Shown here: in pieces, positions 44,040 through 54,405 of the stretch
Layout: each line of letters starts with the position of its first letter
How positions within the stretch are numbered: position 1 is the first letter of the stretch
Assembly: GCA_013368325.1 (NCBI GenBank)
Contig: JAACJK010000236.1
Coordinates: 62,001 to 126,000, forward strand
DNA: 64,000 bases
Direction: 5' to 3'
Source: Ephemerocybe angulata
Taxonomy: Eukaryota; Basidiomycota; Agaricomycetes; Agaricales; Psathyrellaceae
Program-made: the position numbers and the translations under genes
Notes under the pieces: model-generated
Database searches by the model: none
What the model saw: the letters and a program-made list of their open reading frames with translations, nothing else
What the model was told of the DNA's origin: nothing

Positions 44040-45184
44040 ATGCCTCCAAAACAGAAAGAATCGTTCACCTCGAACATCCCCTGGGACGATGTCAACGCCA
44101 ATATCCTGCGAACGTTGTGCGCGACCTGGGGAGTACATGGTTCAATGGCCAAAGCCAACATGATAGCGTTTCTGCATGACCTGGAGAAGAACGGATGTGA
44201 GCACTATCCCCTACCAGCTGGATCAGTCAAGAGAGTCCCGCTGGCATCTTTCCGAGCCTGTCCAATCGCAAGCGCTCAGATATATGCCACTATCGGGGGC
44301 TGGCGGTCCAGAGGAGTGAATCGAACACTTACACCAACCATTTTCTCGATCTAGTGGAAAAAGCCCTTGCTGCCCGTTCAAATCGTGAAGAGTCCCCGGA
44401 AATGGGGTCCCCATCTCAGCCTGCCGTGTCCCGACCTCGCACAACGAGTCTGAAGCGTAAGAAAGCCGACGCCGTCCCTATTGAAGAACCTGCCGCCGAC
44501 GGCCTGCCGTACAACACGAGGCATAAGGGACAAAAGCGTGTGCGTGTTACAGCGCCACCCCTCCCCAGAGCTTCTCCTGTGAGGCGGAAAGTTCGTCCCG
44601 CTACAGGCGAGACATCCGCAGGTTCGATATCAGCTGCGGGTGCGGCATCCGATCCACCAGTGAAGAGACCTAGAGGGCGTCCGCCAAAGTCCGCATCGGC
44701 CGCTGGGCTTTCCACTGCCAATACTACTGAATCTGGAACTGCACCTGTCAAGCGTGGACGAGGGCGGCCCAGGAAATCCGCTCTACAGGTCCCTCCAGCG
44801 TCGACTGCCACTGGGAAACCAAAGCAAGTTTTTGACGGAGTTGTGTTGATGAAGGCCCGGCGTTCTGAACCTGCGGAAGACGAAGATGCTGACGGGGAAG
44901 TGGACGATGAGCTTGAAGGCCATCTTGTGGTGATCCCCAGCGCCGAAACGTCGAGCCTTGGCAGCTCTAATAAGGGTGCGTACCTTTTCATTTTGCCTGT
45001 TTAAGTTAATTCCAAAACCTCAGCTCAGAAAACTATCCTGAACCCCCCGTTGTAGAAGGTAAGCATCCCCACATGCCCTCCTCTTCTGCCTGCTAACAAG
45101 ACTCTTTTAGCTGCCCCTCCCTTGACTACGGAAGAGTCCCTGGTCGACGCTCTGAATCGCGCCTCAGGAGCTTTACACAAGTGA
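44040..45184 (+). CDS. Nuclear AT-hook protein with SAP-like N-terminus
   Basis: Probably a chromatin or DNA-binding protein. The N-terminal 52 residues (MPPKQKESFT..., then LRTLCATWGVHGSMAKANM) resemble a SAP-like helix pair. The middle contains two AT hooks, KRPRGRPPKS and KRGRGRPRKS, plus Lys/Arg-rich and Ser/Pro-rich linkers; the tail is acidic (EDEDADGEVDDE) then VDALNRASGALHK. Supported exons: 44040-44196, 44355-44975, 45029-45058, 45111-45184 (293 aa). The first intron is 158 nt, long for this genome; an extra 36-nt exon at 44280-44315 is in phase and may be real. The AT hooks are certain, the specific role is not. Confidence 0.82.
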
Positions 45185-45518: not shown

Positions 45519-47683
45519 TCACTGCGTATACATTGGAGCATATAAGGGCGGGTAGCTCGATGGGTCCTCAACGATATGCCGTTCTCCCGCTTCGCGAAGC
45601 CGGTTGGTGACTTGAGAAGTGTTCTCGCGAACGGTGAGCCAAATGAAGGGGACGTGGTGCTTGCGAACCATTTCCATGTAGTGCTGGACGCCATCGAGTT
45701 TATCGCAGAGCTGCTGCGCAAGATATGCGTCCTGGATAGAACATGTCGTTTATGAGAATCGTGCGAATGGATGTTCCGAAGAACGCAAGCTCACCTTCAT
45801 GCAATATATAGCTAAAGTCTTTCGTGTGTCAGGATCTCCCTTCTGCAAGACGGGAATCATATTGAATGATACCCCTTCCTTTCCGTCGCCCAAAAAGCGT
45901 TCAGATAAGTGCTGAAGTTTAAACGATCCGTCTGTGCCTGGGCAGTTCTTCCTACGCGCACAATGAAGAACGTCGACGTTCAATCGGCCGACGAAGTATG
46001 GCACATCCTGCCAAGTGTATGGGAGATCGTTTCGAAGGTATTTTATCGTTCCCTCTACGTCAAAAGGATGGTTAGACGCCAAGGAAGGGAGTTCAAGATC
46101 GAAAGCACCAACCTTTAAACCTTCCCAACTTCCCAAAATCAGGCAAACCAAGGATGCGGGCCCGTTGCAGGAGATAGGGCAAGTCAAACTTGAGGCTGTT
46201 GAACCCCAGAACAACATCTGGATCGATTTCCCTGACGAATCGGCTCCATTCCTTAAGGAGGATTTTCTCATCCGAAAAGCAATAAACCTTCGCCCCCGGA
46301 ATATCGGCACACTTGTCCAGGGCAAAGACGCAGCGAAGGAATGGCGGTTCGACTGTGCCGTCTGCGGAACCTGGAAGCCATGGACAATGAGCGGATGACT
46401 GACAGTTATCGTGAAAACGTACTATTTCGCCGAGAGACGGTACAACCAATCTGTATCACCGCCTCAGTCACCGCCTTAGGGAAGGGTCGCTCGTACTTCC
46501 CGTTAGGCTGCTTGACAGGCTCACCGACCATGGTTTCGATATCGAAGCTCAAGAAGCGCAAAGGCGCCATCGCCAACGTTAGCCTTTTCTGGCGCTCAGT
46601 TACTTTAACGTCTTCCGAGCTAGATCGTCTTGTTAGATAGGCTCACCAAAGTCCGAAAGGAAGTTTGCATACCTAGCAGAAAATTCGAGGCAATTGGATT
46701 TCCTCGCAGTTTCTTCAATGACCTCGTACTTGTTGCCTTCAACCTTCACCCATGCAAAGGGCATTATCTAGAAAGAATATCAGCATAAGAAAGGTATGAG
46801 GGTTATCCGCTGTTGCGCACCTTGGTTTCTAACATGAACCTAGTCAAGTACGGCACATCGCTTTCGTAAGTGAGCTCTGGATTCCTGAACAGCCCCTTGT
46901 AGTTGCAACGGCCAAGCTTGAGGATATGTGAAGACGGAAATTGGAGTCAGAATAGTGAGGTTGCGATATGTCCAAAGTGACTCATCTCTCGCTCTCCTCA
47001 TCATAGAAGGGTATTCCAACAATACCTTGAGGAACTCTCGCTTATCGGTACCCTGTTGAACCGATTTACGATGGATTTCTATCTCTCCAATTACACCTTC
47101 CTTGTCCGGGAACTGTGCCTGAAAGCGAAGGAAAGGGTTGGCACCTCTCTGACAGTGCAAATTGGCACATACGTACATTTAAGGAGTCCTTCAGCAGATT
47201 CAAATCCTCGGCCTTGAAGCCGTAAGGTTTCGGATAATAGAAATAGTGTTTGAATGTGTTCACTGTGAGCATAAGGGGGCAGCCACCCTGAAGCAGAGCA
47301 GAAGGAAGCGTTAGCATCCGTCACAGAGAGCGAAGAATAGTCCACGCGTACCTCAGAAGCACCGAATACATGTAAAAGCCCATGACCTTCGTCGTCAACC
47401 CCTTCTTCAACCTCGAGAGCCTGGAAGACTGGAGACCAGTCGTGTGGGGAGCGTGAGCAAGAACGCATAGGTCCAACCATTCATCGGTCCTTACCCAGCG
47501 GCTTCGACTTATCCACCTCCAGAGGCTTTCGTCCGAAGTCGGTAGCATATCCATTCTCTATGTGAGGGTGAGATGCGGTTGGAGGACTGCTTAGGTAGTT
47601 GGCGAACCTGGCATCGCGGGCAGGTGCTCAAGCACACCCGACACGAAAGATTCGCCAGTCTTGAGTTTCTTTGCGGAGACCAT
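45519..47683 (-). CDS. DNA polymerase delta-like protein, exonuclease domain only (copy 1)
   Basis: Resembles the N-terminal half of the polymerase delta catalytic subunit (family B). Exo I is SFDIETM (Asp about 241, Glu about 243), Exo II is GFNSLKFDLPYLL and Exo III is YCMKDAYL, so the metal-binding acids and Tyr of a 3'-5' exonuclease are kept. The protein stops about 70 residues later. Polymerase motifs A (DFxSLYPS), B and C (YGDTDS) and the C-terminal zinc/iron-sulfur modules are absent, and no remnant lies downstream. Exons in order: 47608-47683, 47495-47557, 47352-47428, 47177-47287, 46993-47118, 46821-46916, 46673-46767, 46423-46619, 46113-46370, 45795-46054, 45519-45731 (523 aa). The fifth intron lacks a GT donor in the needed place (GC at 46992 or GA at 46986). 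All other phases agree. Confidence 0.82.
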
Positions 47684-48267
47684 TGTAGTTGGGGGGAAAA
47701 GGCGATGATGGGCGAGGAGTATATATGCTGCGAAAAAAAAAATTGTTGACCAGGTAAATACTGCGGGAAGAGAGGGAATCCGAGAGCGACTCGATCAGGA
47801 TGACCTAAATTTGGCGCGAGCCAAATAGGGAATAATGCCGATCAAACGCGTCTCAGGGGTCGCGACGCGTCCTGCTTCCCCTGCTCGCCAGAATGAAGAT
47901 CAGCAAAAGGCTGTGAACGCCACCCTTAATCGTTAAGAAACCGAAACGGCAATGCATCGCCGCCCACTATCCAAATAAGAGATCGCCAGGAAGAGAAATT
48001 ATCTGAAACGGCCATCACGGGATGCCTGAGTTCAGCGCTCAGCACTGCATAACATTCAGCGTCAAGGAAAGCACGACTGGTTTTAGCATACCTCCCACCT
48101 TTAAAAAGGCGGAAGAGTCCACGCCTCATAACCTGTGCGTCAAAAAGCCCATCTTGAAGTGAGGAAGGGCATTCGAAGGAGAGGCGGGTGCTTATTCCAT
48201 CGAAACCCGAAAGTCAACAAAGGTGATTTGGTATCCGAGTCACACAACTAGGAGACTTGTTAGTATA
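47684..48267. other. Intergenic, 0.58 kb
   Basis: Promoter of exonuclease copy 1 and 3' flank of dynactin p62. An A-run (about 47730-47740) lies near the start codon. No gene recognised. Confidence 0.5.
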
Positions 48268-50152
48268 TTATAGATCCAATTTCACTTCCTCCCGTGGAAT
48301 GATAGGCCCCAGGTCCACAACGGTGTAGAATGAGAAGGTCTTGATCTCGGGGGCTCTAGCATTGTGCCCATCCATATCCCCGCTTTCTGAAGGGGCGGGG
48401 TCATCCGATCGATATGTGTATGAGACCAACATATTGAACTGAACCAGAATTAGCTGGGATTCAAGGGAATGAATGCAGTCGTACCTTCACGCTTCCTTGA
48501 GCTTCCTTCCCGATGACAATCTCCCCGCCAACGACCGTCTTGTTTGCTTTGCGCTCCAAAACACCAACAGTCTTTGGCCGAGCTCGTCCATCTTTGTCCT
48601 TCGTCGTCTTCACAGTAGCGGAAGTTGGTCCAATGCCCAGCTCATCGTCCTCCACTCCAAACATATCCTCGTCATCTTCGTACTCCCAAGCTTCAGCGAA
48701 CGGCGAAATGGGGAATTTGGTTGTCGGGAGAGATATAGCGAAAGGTGGCCTCTTCGCCTTTTCCGGAGACACTCCTTCTTTGGCAGGGGCTGTTGAAACA
48801 TGTACTCGTTGCACCGACAATCGGACTTCGATGGGGTCGTATAGCGGATTGGTGAGGTTCAACTGGAATTCATACGACCTGCCAGCGACCATTCCGACAG
48901 AGGGCTCTTCCGCTTGCGCTGAGACTGACTTTCCAAGGTTCCGTTTGAGAAGTTCTTCTTTAGCTTGACGAACATGAGGAAGGACGACGACGATCCCTGG
49001 GAGGTAATTGGACGCGACAAGTTTGATCTTGTATCGCACGGATTGCGATTTCTGTTCAGGCTTAATGAGAATGTGTGTGCATGCTGGACATCGTTTCGAG
49101 CGCTTCGAGTGGAGGGGTATGCGAATCGGCTTCAGATCTCTGCATAACAAATGAGTCAAGCCCGGCACCGACACTGGAAGCCACCCACTTTGTTTGCATA
49201 GAGCTAACCCAACTACTCTCCCATCGTTGGTCCAAGCTCGCGACCTCATCCACCTCCTCAAGCCCGTTCATCAGTTCTACATCGAGCTCGCCTCCACCGG
49301 CGGCCTGCGAGATCTCCGACCGACTACGATACTCAGTCATCTCGTCTCTGTTCACGCTCTTATCTTTTCCATATCCGCGATTGTTCGTGCTTCGAGCGAG
49401 TGGGTTATACTTTCCGACCCCAGGTATATCGCGCGCCAGGGCGGCAGACGCAGCGGCTGTGATTGAATTGGTATGAAGCGAATGTGAGTGGGTATGATGG
49501 GGATGGGTACCAGTCGTGGACGCTGCCAGTGCAGATTGCCGGAGGAATGCATCAAAGTGCTCTTTCAGACGGTCGAATTCGAGGGAGTCGGGTGCGGAGT
49601 CCTCGAACTTCTGGAGTTGGGCTGTTGGTGGGGAATCGGTTTTTGAAAAATGTGTTAGTGGGAGGAGAAAGTCCTACTCACCAGCGAGCCCGGTAGGTTT
49701 CTCAAAGGTAATGCCAATTTCGACGGAGTCCCACCGACAGTGGTTGCAGTAGAGGATGTAGGGACCTTCGTTGACGCTCCCGGATATTCGGCCATCGCTT
49801 GACTCTGGAGGATCCGCAGGCACTGCTGCCAGGGTGTTGCGGCAATTCGGGCACATGAAACAGTTTCTCGCACATCTGGGATGGAATTAGATGGAAACAA
49901 GAACGATGGTGACGCGTACCTGTTCTTCTCTGCTCGGACGCTAGCACTTGGCACCTCGAAAAGACAATTTGGGCAGTAGTAACTGCTCACTTCGACAGAG
50001 ACGCATTGGTTACAGCGCACGGCGTCGCATTCTTCACAGAAGAAAAGGGTATTGAGAGGGTGGAAACTATACGACGACGATGGAAGATGTGGTGGTGGAG
50101 GCACCGAGGACGTGGATAGGCATGGACAGTGGTAGAGGACGCTCGGCGCCAT
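48268..50152 (-). CDS. DCTN4: Dynactin subunit p62 (DCTN4)
   Basis: Pointed-end subunit of dynactin, the dynein activator for microtubule transport. The N-terminal part has Cys clusters typical of p62: CEECDAVRCNQC, YYCPNC, CARNCFMCPNC and YCNHC. The centre has the signature SKRCPACTHILIKPEQK then YKIKLVASNYLPGI. The C-terminal domain (LTNPLYDPIEVRL ... FSFYTVVDLGPIIP) is complete. Exons in order: 49920-50152, 49682-49875, 49189-49621, 48485-49139, 48268-48438 (561 aa). The fourth exon is joined through a 49-nt intron with a CTTGAC branch site, which gives SSMQTKDLKPIRIPLHSKR. It lies between the two exonuclease-only genes. Confidence 0.95.
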
Positions 50153-50478
50153 GGGAAGTTGAGGAACAGGTGCTCATTTAAGCGCCGATGTCACCACGCT
50201 GTTTGTCACTGGCCTTTGAACCACACGGTAGGCGTGGGATGACTGAGAGTGACGCTTTGATCGGGGCAACTGAAGCACTTGACCTTCGCGTTCAACGTCG
50301 TTACACTGCGCCCACCTCCTCAACTTCGGATCGACTCAGAAACTCAGAAACTTGAAGAGGTTTAAATTTGTCGGTGGCCAGTTATAGGTTAGAAAATAAC
50401 TTGAAATAACCCAAGCATTCACTGGTGATTTAGCCCTCGGAACTTGGTCTTGGCTGGTTTCTTTCGTCCGGTTATACC
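50153..50478. other. Bidirectional promoter region, 0.33 kb
   Basis: Only 326 nt separate the start codons of dynactin p62 (-) and exonuclease copy 2 (+). No TATA box is obvious on either strand. Confidence 0.5.
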
Positions 50479-52654
50479 ATGGCTAAAAGGCTTAAGCTCG
50501 ACGACTCTTTCTCTGCTGCATTGGAGAACCTCGCTCCTAACCAAGTCCTTACGGATGCATCCAACAGTAAGCACAACGCCAGTTTGCCCCGGTATCAGAG
50601 CTTGACGCGGTTCAGCAGGCAAGGGGAAGTACACAAGTGATTATGGAAGGCAATTCGTCTCTCCAGACAACAATTCAGACTCTCTGGGTCAGTTTAATAT
50701 ATCTCTTACATCCCTTCAATCTTTAAATGTAGTATTTGCTCAGTATTCCAGGCAATCCATCTGGAAGAAGGACTCAACGTTGACCGCCATGGCATCATAC
50801 GGGTATACGGGGTGACAGAAGTATGACTTCGGCCCAACCAGCAACCTTCCAACTAACCAGGCCTCCCTATTCTTCCTCACAGTCTGGCTATCCCGTTTCT
50901 CTTACTCTAGAGGGATTCGACCACTATTTCTTCTTCCCTGCTCCACCAGGTTTCGAGACAGAAGACCTCAAACCACTACAAGTCCATCTAAATGTAGGGG
51001 ACTATCATTTCCCTCATCTCCAATTGGCTCGCAGCTGACTTTTTTCAGGCAATTATACCAGGCGCACTGTCTGTAAAAGACATTGCGCTGCACCGTAAAC
51101 GCATCAGGCCCAAATCGACCGAGGTTCTATTCCTAAAGATCACACTTTGGACACCGTCGAGAGCGGAAGCCATGAAAGATAAGCTCTGCCTTCCGCTTCA
51201 GCATACTCACACGGAACGAATGATATCTTTGCACACATCTTCAAGCAAGGCCGCTGCACTTACCGTGACCTCTTCAGCAATCCTGACGCAACCTATGGAT
51301 GCGATCTTCCCTATGTCTCTAGATTCATGACAGACACTCAGGTAGACCACAGAATGCCTTTTTACTATTTCACGATGTGGCCTATACTCACCTCAAACAT
51401 CTAGATTCTACCTATGACATGGATTCGCATCCCAGCATCGAAATATACAGTCGTGGGAGACGCCGATCGGTCCTCGACATGTCAATTGGAACTCCTTTCA
51501 AGGTATCGACAGCTCGCGTACAAGACTCATGATAAATGCGACCTGACCTACCATCCCAGTTATGAAGATATCGAGCTAGTGTCTGGCGGGGACAGGTCCA
51601 CATTGCCTGAAATCGCTCCACTGCGCGTCATGAGCATGGACATTGAAACGATGGTTCCTCCATCGAACGGCTTTCCCCGGCCAACTCAAGAGCAAGTCAT
51701 TCAGATCGCCTGCACCGTCTCACTCCGTCGATGTAGGTCTTCCGGAACCTCGAACGAAGCTATAACTGGAGGTATAACTTATAATTCACGTTTAGATTCT
51801 ACAAACGCAGAAACAGCTGTTGAGATTGAGCAGCCCTTTTTCAGAAGCGTATTCGCTCTTGATTCAGTTGCCGAGATCCCTGGGTGCCAGATTTTCTCCT
51901 TCGAAGATGAAAGGGACCTCCTCAGCGAATGGAGGAAGTTTGTCATCAACATGGACCCCGACTTGATTGTTGGACACAACATTCTCAAGTTCGATATACC
52001 TTTCCTGCTCTTGAGGGCCAGTCATGTGGGCCTTAAGGATTTCGCTTTGCTGGGGAGACAGAAAGGTGAGTTGATTGATTTCACTCTTCAGTACTGCCAC
52101 TCATATCTCCTGCACTCCTGTAGACCGAAGATCGACGTACAGAGTAGAGTTCAAGATGGAGATTCGAGACAAGGAGGAAACCTTCAGCCCGGTCATTCCA
52201 GGCCGGCTCGTCATCGACATTCTCCATTGGGCTCGGAGAAATATCAAGGGAACGGGGACGGGATTAAGAACCCTCGAAACCCTTTCAAACAAGTACCTTG
52301 GCTCGAGCAAGGAAGGGATCAAGTTCCAAGAAATATCGGGCCTGCAGAAGGGTGAAACGGCCTCAGCGGAAACTCGGAGGGAACTCGCCCTTTATTGCTT
52401 AAAGGTATGTTAAGCCTACTTAATAGCTATCAGTTGATGCGATACATTGATGATTGTATACTCAGGATGCATACCTGGCTCAACAACTTTGCGACAAGTT
52501 ACGTTGTTTGGAGGACTTCTATTTGCGAACGTCCCTGGACCATCACATCCCGATCAACTGGGTCACTACACAGCTACCAGTATTCCTCCAGACGATGAAA
52601 AAGGTGGCAAATGCGAAGGGAGAGTACATCATCGCAGACAAGATGGGCGGTTAA
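50479..52654 (+). CDS. DNA polymerase delta-like protein, exonuclease domain only (copy 2)
   Basis: Paralog of copy 1. Start MAKRLKLDDSF, then the polymerase-delta N-terminal part (VFQAIHLEEGLNVDRHG). Exo I is SMDIETM (Asp about 251, Glu about 253), Exo II is VGHNILKFDIPFLL and Exo III is YCLKDAYL. All catalytic residues are kept and the polymerase domain is absent: the stop (52652-52654) comes 63 codons into the last exon. Exons: 50479-50566, 50616-50687, 50744-50820, 50883-50993, 51049-51177, 51246-51341, 51405-51502, 51560-51732, 51796-52065, 52124-52404, 52466-52654 (527 aa). Exons 3, 4 and 6 have the same lengths as in copy 1 (77, 111, 96 nt). The donor of the fifth intron is again not GT (GA at 51178, or GC at 51163). 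Confidence 0.82.
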
Positions 52655-53505
52655 CCTGAAACGGCACACAAGAGGACTCATTAAGGACCGGCGACATGAA
52701 CTCGGCTAGCTCAATGCGGGCGCTTAATTCGAGAGCCGGCGGAAGCGCCCGAAAGTGAACGTCGAAGCGGTGTGTCCCTATCAAAGATCTATGTTGGATC
52801 CATCACGCTGTTAGCACCGCCATACCCTATGTCTGGAAAATGCTCGACATGCTGTTCCTTCTCCCACCGGCCCACCCAAAGGAAGCCCAAGTCGAGTCAG
52901 ATAACTTCGAAGAGTCATCAGCCTGCCCGAGCAGTACGGGAGAGCGCTTTGTTTGTCAGTGGCGTAAATAGTAAGGATCACATTCAGTCGTCAAACGGGA
53001 TCCGCGGCTGCAGCTCGCGACTATTTCCTTGTGACCTTCATCCAGCGAATGCATCGGATCCTTCAGAGCGCCTTAACGCCCCAGCGCCGTTGTTATGGAT
53101 GGAAAGAGCTGCCCGTTCTCAACACAACTGCCTATTGCTGCCAATCTTCTTCCGAGCTCCAACAGATTTGTTGTTCTGGTCGCCGGTGGCTCTGATAAGA
53201 TTGCGACGAGTTCTGGTGGGTCGCTGGAACTTCTGATGAATTGGCCATTCTAGGATTCTTTCGTAAAGATTGCGCGGCGTACTATCTCGTACTATGTAGA
53301 GGTCAGTAATGAAGCATCGCGGCTTTCTTTCCTTCCTTGTTCCTGTTGATCCCCCCGTTCCTCCCCTTCACATTCTTCTCGACGTTGAGCAGCGCTCAAC
53401 TGTCCTTTTGGCTCCCCTTACTGCCCAGTGCAGTCTTTACTTTCCTTCATTCTTTTCAACATTTCAAGGGACCCCAGCAAGCTGGTAAATCAAGCAGATA
53501 AGGAA
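52655..53505. other. Intergenic, 0.85 kb
   Basis: Checked for leftover polymerase motifs after the exonuclease gene: none (no SLYPS, no YGDTD). The right end is pyrimidine-rich (53330-53460) and probably holds the promoter and leader of the membrane-protein gene. Confidence 0.55.
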
Positions 53506-54405
53506 ATGTCGTCGCCGAAAACGAAATCGCCACTGTCATCGAGGATGAGGGCGCTCCCTCCATCCTATGATAGAAATCAATCGCAAGCCAGGGCTGAGGG
53601 GAGGAGTCGCGATAACGGTCCTCGAGCGGACTCTCTGGACGCGTTGTTCTACGCCGGTCCCGCCCCAAGGACACCGGAGAGGAACCCTCATTCCGCTTCC
53701 CATCGGTCACCATCCTCGACCGGATCTATCGACAAGTCGGAAATCGTCAAGTCTTCAGCCTCCACTCTCAAGCCAATCTTCCATGGGATGCAAATCCCCA
53801 CCCTCCTCGCCTGCTTCGTCCAGGTCGTCGTAGCGTCCGTGTTCGTCACTGCCTGGATCATAAGCGCCAACAAGATCTCCGACATGTCGAAGGACGGAGG
53901 GAAAGTGCCAGGTGGTAAGGGAGCCACCATCTTCCTGCACATTGCCTTCGCCTTCGCCATCTCAGGCCAGCTTTTCTTCATCGAGAGGCGGGTGTACAGG
54001 CTGCGCGCGGAGCGATACGCGCACAAGCATGCGGGGGCTATATTGCCACAGTTCACGAAATCGCAAGGGGGTGGAGCGGAGTCTATCGCATATGCCCCAT
54101 GGAACAGGGCTCCTCTCGTCACCTACGCTGCGGCTCTCGCACAATCCGGTCATGCTACAGGGAGTGTCGATGATCATCTTATCGCCATCCCCCCTCCTCC
54201 TGCATATGGGAATACCCGTGACAGCACTTTACTGCTTTCGGGGTTCTCCACCGAAGCCTCGAGAGTCCAGAGGCCCCCTTCTGTTCATACTCATAGGGAA
54301 CGGGGTTTGGAACGTGGAGATGATGGAAATATTGGGTCCAGCAGGGAGAGCCACTTGCAGGAGAGCTTGGCCAGATTGGAGAGATCTAGGACGGGGAGCC
54401 GCTGA
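53506..54405 (+). CDS. Predicted two-span membrane protein
   Basis: Not recognised. Single exon, 299 aa. The N-terminal 100 residues are Ser/Pro/Arg-rich and probably cytosolic. Two hydrophobic spans are clear: LLACFVQVVVASVFVTAWII and ATIFLHIAFAFAISGQLFF, with a short Gly/Lys-rich loop between. A basic segment ERRVYRLRAERYAHKH follows the second span, which by the positive-inside rule puts both ends on the cytosolic side. The tail is Ser/Arg-rich and disordered. ATG 53506 is the first in frame. Confidence 0.75.
   Translation: MSSPKTKSPLSSRMRALPPSYDRNQSQARAEGRSRDNGPRADSLDALFYAGPAPRTPERNPHSASHRSPSSTGSIDKSEIVKSSASTLKPIFHGMQIPTLLACFVQVVVASVFVTAWIISANKISDMSKDGGKVPGGKGATIFLHIAFAFAISGQLFFIERRVYRLRAERYAHKHAGAILPQFTKSQGGGAESIAYAPWNRAPLVTYAAALAQSGHATGSVDDHLIAIPPPPAYGNTRDSTLLLSGFSTEASRVQRPPSVHTHRERGLERGDDGNIGSSRESHLQESLARLERSRTGSR

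What the first reader, a model, noticed from the sequence alone, without database searches (positions are those of the whole stretch)
45519..52654. Two polymerase delta-like genes that end after an intact exonuclease domain, flanking dynactin p62
Both genes (45519-47683 minus, 50479-52654 plus) encode about 525 aa resembling the N-terminal half of the polymerase delta catalytic subunit. Exo I (DIE), Exo II (N-x-x-x-FD) and Exo III (Y-x-x-x-D) are intact, but both stop at about the same place and have no polymerase motifs or remnants. The proteins differ strongly, yet all intron positions correspond and several exon lengths are identical (77, 111, 96 nt). So the truncation predates their divergence and both frames have been kept. 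Inference: free-standing proofreading-type exonucleases, perhaps acting in trans on the replisome or in repair.
Basis: partly seen in the sequence, partly recalled or inferred. Interest (0 to 1): 0.78.

Follow-up and report, generated by a model that had tools for sequence, protein, structure and literature searches.

The report
Mushroom proofreading nucleases without a polymerase
Two neighbouring mushroom genes make only the error-erasing half of a DNA-copying enzyme; related mushrooms carry the same shortened gene with its cutting site intact, so it looks like a kept, free-standing DNA-end trimming enzyme whose job is still to be tested.

Summary
The window lies in an Ephemerocybe angulata (Agaricales) genome that also has a full-length POL3 on another contig. 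Genes A (45519-47683, minus; 529 aa) and B (50479-52654, plus; 530 aa) each splice through 10 introns into the N-terminal plus exonuclease half of DNA polymerase delta. They stop about where POL3's intron 11 begins, and no polymerase remnant was found. All 10 intron positions agree between A and B and 9 with POL3, including a rare AT-AC intron. The B model equals, letter for letter, a database protein best read as a spliced transcript. A and B belong to an exonuclease-only family seen here in nine Agaricales genera. It forms one clade (100/98) apart from Pol delta, so one truncation predates the A/B split. All seven catalytic positions are kept (7 of 7, against 23 of 73 other Pol-delta-invariant positions), while the beta-hairpin motif and much of the palm-side segment, which serve polymerisation, are lost. 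AlphaFold2 models close without the palm. Best reading: a conserved, free-standing 3'-5' exonuclease. Activity was not measured; proofreading in trans is plausible and untested. My literature searches listed no description of this family.

The parts
45519..47683 (-). Gene A, exonuclease-only Pol delta paralog, 529 aa. Exons (high to low): 47683-47608, 47557-47495, 47428-47352, 47287-47177, 47118-46986, 46927-46821, 46767-46673, 46619-46423, 46370-46113, 46054-45795, 45731-45519.
   Evidence: Hand-spliced model, one terminal stop; PF03104; deposited model D9611_014024 = P0021 differs at intron 5.
50479..52654 (+). Gene B, exonuclease-only Pol delta paralog, 530 aa. Exons: 50479-50566, 50619-50687, 50744-50820, 50883-50993, 51049-51178, 51235-51341, 51405-51502, 51560-51732, 51796-52065, 52124-52404, 52466-52654.
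   Evidence: Hand-spliced model identical to database protein P0001; PF03104; deposited model D9611_014026 = P0002 differs at intron 5.
46928..46985 (-). Intron 5 of A, AT-AC type (AG|ATGAGT...TTCAC|AT), shared with B and POL3.
   Evidence: the deposited sister-strain protein P0022 has the same join.
51179..51234 (+). Intron 5 of B, AT-AC type (AG|ATAAGC...TTTGCAC|AC).
   Evidence: P0001 has exactly this join.
46113..46619 (-). Gene A, exons 8-9: Exo I (D247, E249) and Exo II (N344, D349).
51560..52065 (+). Gene B, exons 8-9: Exo I (D254, E256) and Exo II (N346, D351).
45519..46054 (-). Gene A, exons 10-11: fourth carboxylate D400, Exo III Y456 and D460, and C-terminal end of the protein.
52124..52654 (+). 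Gene B, exons 10-11: fourth carboxylate D406, Exo III Y465 and D469. The stop codon lies where POL3 has the donor of its intron 11.

Best explanation
A and B are functional members of an Agaricales gene family that arose once, by a DNA-level partial copy of POL3 ending at its intron 11. The proteins keep the N-terminal and DEDD exonuclease domains of Pol delta and lack the palm, fingers, thumb and C-terminal parts. They most likely work as free-standing nuclear 3'-5' DNA exonucleases that remove 3'-terminal nucleotides, best from single-stranded or frayed ends: mispaired primer ends left when a polymerase lets go (proofreading in trans), or 3' ends in repair. Shown here: gene structure, single origin in the sampled set, site constraint, kept catalytic residues, closed fold models. 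Strong inference: splicing and expression of B. Inferred only: activity, substrate, nuclear location, pathway.
For: Exo-only relatives in nine Agaricales genera (taxonomy), one clade at 100/98 and 100/100. Seven of seven catalytic positions fully kept in 12 rows against 23 of 73 other Pol-delta-invariant positions, p 6.4e-4. Constraint after truncation: A against P0022 8/87 against 90/442 (p 0.008), Galerina against Gymnopilus 11/80 against 190/442 (p 1.6e-7). pS saturated, pN 0.37 between A and B. B equals database protein P0001. Fold models with pLDDT 83 and 82; best solved match yeast Pol delta. Beta-hairpin motif lost in 13 of 13, a part that Pol delta does not need for proofreading (PMC6153641, passages). 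Pol delta can proofread errors made by other polymerase molecules (PMC4351087, section 15 part 1).
Against: No activity, expression or genetic data. No transcript-like copy of A was found. Pol3's C-terminal recruitment parts are absent, and a simple PIP pattern was found in 0 of 13 exo-only proteins. Fast sequence change (A 81-82% identical between two deposited E. angulata genomes) and a patchy list of genera fit a non-core role better than an essential replisome part. The B pair of the two genomes is too similar to show constraint (p 0.54).
Confidence: 0.7

Rival explanations
1. An active nuclease but not a replication proofreader: it trims 3' ends in repair or recombination, or degrades ends of mobile or extrachromosomal DNA; its fast change and patchy spread reflect such a non-core or defensive role.
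For: Fast change between two deposited genomes of one species (A 81-82% identity), long family branches, nine genera only in the hit lists (which are capped), no known replisome contact motif.
Against: The active site is that of a replicative proofreader and the N-terminal domain is kept. Nothing in the neighbourhood suggests defence.
Confidence: 0.35
2. A non-catalytic role: the N-terminal/exonuclease half serves as a scaffold or competitor that binds partners of a replicative polymerase.
For: The matching Pol epsilon fragment Pol2(1-528) binds the Ctf18-Dcc1-Ctf8 module in vitro (PMC7641331, passages).
Against: Catalytic residues are the best kept part (7 of 7 against 23 of 73), which a scaffold would not need.
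Confidence: 0.12
3. Decaying partial duplicates of POL3 whose frames are open by luck.
For: The same genome does hold a broken partial copy of the POL3 5' region on C147, so such copies arise. A has no transcript-like support.
Against: Ten introns each spliced into an open frame, relatives in other genera, catalytic residues kept, fewer changes at Pol-delta-invariant sites.
Confidence: 0.04
4. A gene-model artefact: the polymerase half is joined from elsewhere by splicing, or lost by misassembly.
For: None found.
Against: Both genes end alike in a second deposited E. angulata genome (P0003, P0022; same longest-contig length 729,505, so probably one contig) and relatives in other genera end near the same place. 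P0001 ends at the same residue as B. No PF00136 hit on C199.
Confidence: 0.02

Closest known systems
DNA polymerase delta catalytic subunit (POL3/POLD1)
   Same: N-terminal and exonuclease domains, catalytic residues, nine shared intron positions with own POL3; best solved matches are yeast Pol delta.
   Different: No palm, fingers, thumb or C-terminal domain; beta-hairpin motif and much of the segment after Exo III lost.
Pol epsilon fragment Pol2(1-528), a laboratory construct (6s1c)
   Same: N-terminal plus exonuclease half standing alone; purified and crystallised (row 47; PMC7641331, passages).
   Different: Man-made piece of another polymerase, not a natural gene.
Bacterial DnaQ (epsilon subunit of Pol III)
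   Same: Proofreading exonuclease on its own polypeptide (recalled).
   Different: Not compared here; a different exonuclease lineage that sits in the holoenzyme (recalled).
Bacterial stand-alone PolB-like exonucleases (PF10108, PF13482)
   Same: PolB-related exonuclease without a polymerase (recalled).
   Different: Pfam reports neither family for A or B; only PF03104.

Membership tests
DNA polymerase delta catalytic subunit (functional polymerase) | Exonuclease domain with Exo I-III carboxylates | tested here: met
   PF03104 in both; catalytic positions kept.
DNA polymerase delta catalytic subunit (functional polymerase) | Palm/fingers/thumb polymerase domain (PF00136) | tested here: not met
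   Absent from both proteins, from C199 and from the window by tblastn.
DNA polymerase delta catalytic subunit (functional polymerase) | C-terminal zinc-finger domain (PF14260) that links to partner subunits | tested here: not met
   Only PF03104 is found in either protein; the role of that domain is recalled.
Exonuclease-only Pol delta paralogs of Agaricales (family described here) | One clade apart from full-length Pol delta | tested here: met
   100/98 with 13 and 12 rows; 100/100 with 10 and 10 rows. P0011 and P0012 were labelled Pol delta by choice.
Exonuclease-only Pol delta paralogs of Agaricales (family described here) | Ends near POL3 residue 557 | tested here: met
   11 of 13 end between POL3 position 555 and 24 residues past 557; the Mycena and Psilocybe models stop earlier, at 536 and 532.
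Trans-acting replisome proofreader | 3'-5' exonuclease activity | not testable with these tools
   Needs an enzyme assay.
Trans-acting replisome proofreader | Lowers mutation rate when the resident polymerase cannot proofread | not testable with these tools
   Needs a genetic assay.
Trans-acting replisome proofreader | A recruitment motif such as a PIP box | tested here: inconclusive
   One simple PIP pattern found in 0 of 13 exo-only proteins; other contacts were not tested.

The most novel reading that the evidence does not exclude
Mushrooms evolved a dedicated proofreading exonuclease on its own polypeptide, split off from Pol delta by one ancient truncation, that erases polymerase errors in trans: a eukaryotic counterpart in function of bacterial DnaQ, and an extra fidelity layer in long-lived mycelia.
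Probability: 0.3. Interest if true: 0.88.

Novelty: new variant of a known kind. Interest (0 to 1): 0.72.

Why it matters
Eukaryotic replicative proofreading domains are known as parts of their polymerases (recalled). A natural, conserved, polymerase-free version would show which parts of Pol delta serve excision alone: here evolution kept the catalytic site and dropped the beta-hairpin motif and much of the palm-side segment. It would give a ready tool to test proofreading in trans, and may bear on how mushroom mycelia keep their genomes. Database entries that call these proteins 'DNA polymerase delta catalytic subunit' mislead.

Tried and rejected
A polymerase half elsewhere on the contig: rejected. 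A third intact copy in the genome: C147:30528 was first taken for one, but it is a broken copy of the POL3 5' region in three blocks of 87, 91 and 89% identity; searches with P0001 and P0023 gave hits only on C199 and C147 (only the best candidates are scored). dN/dS between A and B has no usable value: pS 0.83 is past saturation, pN 0.37, dN 0.51. dN/dS between the two deposited genomes could not be done, as no DNA of the second is held. The site-constraint test says nothing for B against its sister-strain protein (2/82 against 13/415, p 0.54). The first splice models had wrong acceptors and broke the frame; one search mends the model, not the gene. Frame-keeping GT-AG choices for intron 5 do exist (8 in A, 4 in B, 9 in POL3), but each shortens or alters the segment that matches Pol delta without gaps; the AT-AC join is preferred because P0001 has it exactly and because it restores that segment. 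For POL3 this rests on homology alone. PIP-box scan negative. NCBIfam gives only weak matches to B-family polymerases, far below cut-offs, for five members.

Literature: ten searches. Those aimed at the family or at trans-acting exonucleases listed no paper on an exonuclease-only Pol delta paralog in fungi, by title and abstract; two searches returned nothing. Most subscription journals are not in the library.

Rows left out or labelled by choice: P0002 and P0021 (deposited models of B and A, differing at intron 5) are not in the trees. P0026 (a second Agrocybe model, fused to an unrelated N-terminus) is not used. P0011 and P0012 have PF03104-only stored models of 599 and 597 aa, but I labelled them Pol delta, since they have the canonical motifs and group with Helicosporidium and P0053; if they are real exo-only genes they are a separate origin. 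P0004 and P0050 are fragments. One search leaves out five rows (Hymenopellis, Mycena, Psilocybe, Aphelenchoides, Parelaphostrongylus). The catalytic-retention test leaves out Psilocybe (12 of 13 rows). The hairpin pattern was written after looking at Pol delta sequences. The protein searches scored only the 7,996 candidates sharing most words, so the list of genera is a lower bound.
Full report
WHERE IT IS. The window is C199:62001-126000 of a genome of 58.7 Mb in 232 contigs. The deposited models of the two genes are D9611_014024 (P0021, A) and D9611_014026 (P0002, B) of Ephemerocybe angulata, on a contig of 129,606 bases, which is the length of C199. The species is in Psathyrellaceae, Agaricales.

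GENE MODELS. Hand splicing gives A 529 aa and B 530 aa, 11 exons each, one terminal stop each. Intron 5 is AT-AC in the preferred model. Frame-keeping GT-AG choices exist (8 in A, 4 in B, 9 in POL3), but the AT-AC join restores the segment that aligns to Pol delta without gaps. For B it is also the join of database protein P0001, which equals the whole B model letter for letter. P0001 comes from source 'lgn', on 3 contigs, longest 3,568 bases. The genomic frame is broken by ten introns, so such a protein most simply comes from spliced RNA. I infer expression and splicing of B; I saw no reads. The deposited models P0002 and P0021 differ from mine at intron 5; the deposited sister-strain A protein P0022 has the same join as my A model. 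No transcript-like copy of A turned up. PF03104 is the only Pfam domain in either protein. The gene between them is dynactin p62.

PARENT GENE. Own POL3 lies on C147, from 18126 downward. I modelled its first 12 exons; tblastn pieces of the P0041 polymerase half cover nearly all of its 528 residues there, and PF00136 matches the locus. On a three-way alignment the 10 introns of A and B agree in phase and in column (one is a column apart). Nine of the 10 agree in phase with POL3, two of these nine being 1-4 columns apart. A and B share one phase-1 intron that POL3 lacks, and POL3 has an extra first intron. Intron 5 is AT-AC in all three. AT-AC makes 0.019% of annotated splice sites in fungi (PMC7072748, passages), so common inheritance is the simple reading. 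The copy was therefore made at DNA level, introns included. POL3's intron 11 starts after residue 559. B ends 2 residues past POL3-557 and A 12 past. B's last codons, GGC GGT TAA, lie on the place of POL3's donor G|GTGAGT. My inference is that the ancestral copy lost everything from intron 11 on and took its stop there.

NO POLYMERASE. The 13 PF00136 matches in the genome lie on C18, C28, C140 and C147. tblastn of the polymerase halves of P0041 and P0042 gives nothing better than E 0.57 in the window, while both find the POL3 locus.

A FAMILY, NOT A PAIR. Three protein searches brought exonuclease-only proteins named to nine species in nine genera: Ephemerocybe angulata (A and B in two deposited genomes), Coprinellus aureogranulatus, Crassisporium funariophilum, Galerina marginata, Agrocybe pediades, Gymnopilus junonius, Psilocybe cf. 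subviscida (fragment), Mycena rebaudengoi and Hymenopellis radicata, plus P0004 from an unnamed source. All nine are Agaricales, in suborders Agaricineae and Marasmiineae. The lists are capped, so this is a lower bound. In a tree of 13 exo-only and 12 Pol delta rows the exo-only set is one side of a branch at 100/98; with 10 and 10 rows, 100/100. Holding the six Psathyrellaceae-type exo-only rows together with own POL3 is rejected (log-likelihood 47.6 lower, p-AU 0.0001). Hymenopellis, Mycena and Psilocybe have long branches (2.55, 2.19, 2.14), so their places are unsure. Eleven of 13 rows end between POL3 position 555 and 24 residues past 557; the Mycena and Psilocybe models stop at 536 and 532.

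KEPT AND LOST. One search lists 81 columns (Met1 included) that are invariant in the Pol delta rows and filled in at least 8 exo-only rows; 29 are fully kept in the exo-only rows. The catalytic set in B numbering (D254, E256, N346, D351, D406, Y465, D469) is kept in 13 of 13 rows, except D469 in 12 of 13, where the Psilocybe model breaks off. Leaving out that fragment and Met1, 7 of 7 catalytic positions are fully kept against 23 of 73 others (Fisher p 6.4e-4). Invariant residues are kept at 0.77 in the N-terminal part, 0.73 in the exonuclease part and 0.44 after it, towards the palm. A pattern for the SSKAxG segment is found in 9 of 12 Pol delta rows and in 0 of 13 exo-only rows. By my count on the 7kc0 alignment this segment holds yeast G447, which lies in the beta-hairpin that contacts DNA during polymerisation (PMC5394481, passages). 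[quoted passage not shown] So the family lost what polymerisation uses and kept what excision uses. I predict a preference for ssDNA or frayed ends.

SELECTION. Between A and B pS is 0.83 (saturated) and pN 0.37; differences by codon position are 219, 161 and 337 over 505 codons. A against its sister-strain counterpart P0022 differs at 8 of 87 Pol-delta-invariant sites and 90 of 442 others (p 0.008); Galerina against Gymnopilus 11/80 and 190/442 (p 1.6e-7); B against P0004 20/70 and 102/238 (p 0.02); A against B 23/79 and 261/422 (p 6.7e-8); B against Coprinellus 24/81 and 269/427 (p 2.6e-8); B against its sister-strain protein 2/82 and 13/415 (p 0.54, no information). These differences arose after the truncation if the tree is right, so the truncated proteins were under constraint. 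A real dN/dS needs DNA that is not held here.

HOW IT MOST LIKELY WORKS. As a free nuclear 3'-5' exonuclease with the Pol delta active site. B begins MAKRLKLD, which resembles a Myc-type nuclear signal (recalled, not tested). In yeast, more than 90% of errors by a proofreading-deficient Pol delta are thought to end in dissociation that lets a wild-type Pol delta molecule proofread, and Pol delta appears also to proofread Pol epsilon errors (PMC4351087, section 15 part 1; also PMC6153641 section 13). A free exonuclease could act at that step. Against this, the proteins lack Pol3's C-terminal parts and a simple PIP box, change fast, and show a patchy list of genera; a role in repair, recombination or defence against foreign DNA ends is a serious rival.

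NOVELTY. Known: domain, fold and, by inference, chemistry. New as far as I can tell: a natural gene family of several genera that carries only this half. Database names seen are 'DNA polymerase delta catalytic subunit', 'delta DNA polymerase', 'ribonuclease H-like' and 'hypothetical protein'. The paper searches listed nothing on it, which is no proof of absence from print.

Noticed in passing
window 46928-46985 (A) and 51179-51234 (B); own POL3 at G000 C147:17309-17257 (in L017): An AT-AC intron with a U2-like donor (ATAAG/ATGAG) sits at the same place in POL3 and in both paralogs; the deposited E. angulata models of A and B differ there.
   Followed up: partly
G000 C147 about 30.5-33.8 kb (locus L019 4029-7322): A broken copy of the POL3 5' region and its upstream flank, in three blocks of 87, 91 and 89% identity, 14 kb from POL3: the POL3 locus does throw off partial copies.
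   Followed up: partly
P0026 (Agrocybe pediades D9613_005965, 890 aa): A second Agrocybe exonuclease-only model, joined to an unrelated N-terminal stretch that looks like a membrane protein; probably a gene-model fusion.
   Followed up: no
P0011 and P0012 (599 and 597 aa, source ena): Stored Pol delta-like models that end after the exonuclease domain but keep the canonical Pol delta motifs; partial models or a separate exonuclease-only case.
   Followed up: partly
window 44201-45001 plus strand: Reading frame with an AT-hook match (PF02178, E 1e-4) next to gene A.
   Followed up: no
window 53389-54402 plus strand: 338-aa open frame downstream of B without any Pfam match.
   Followed up: no
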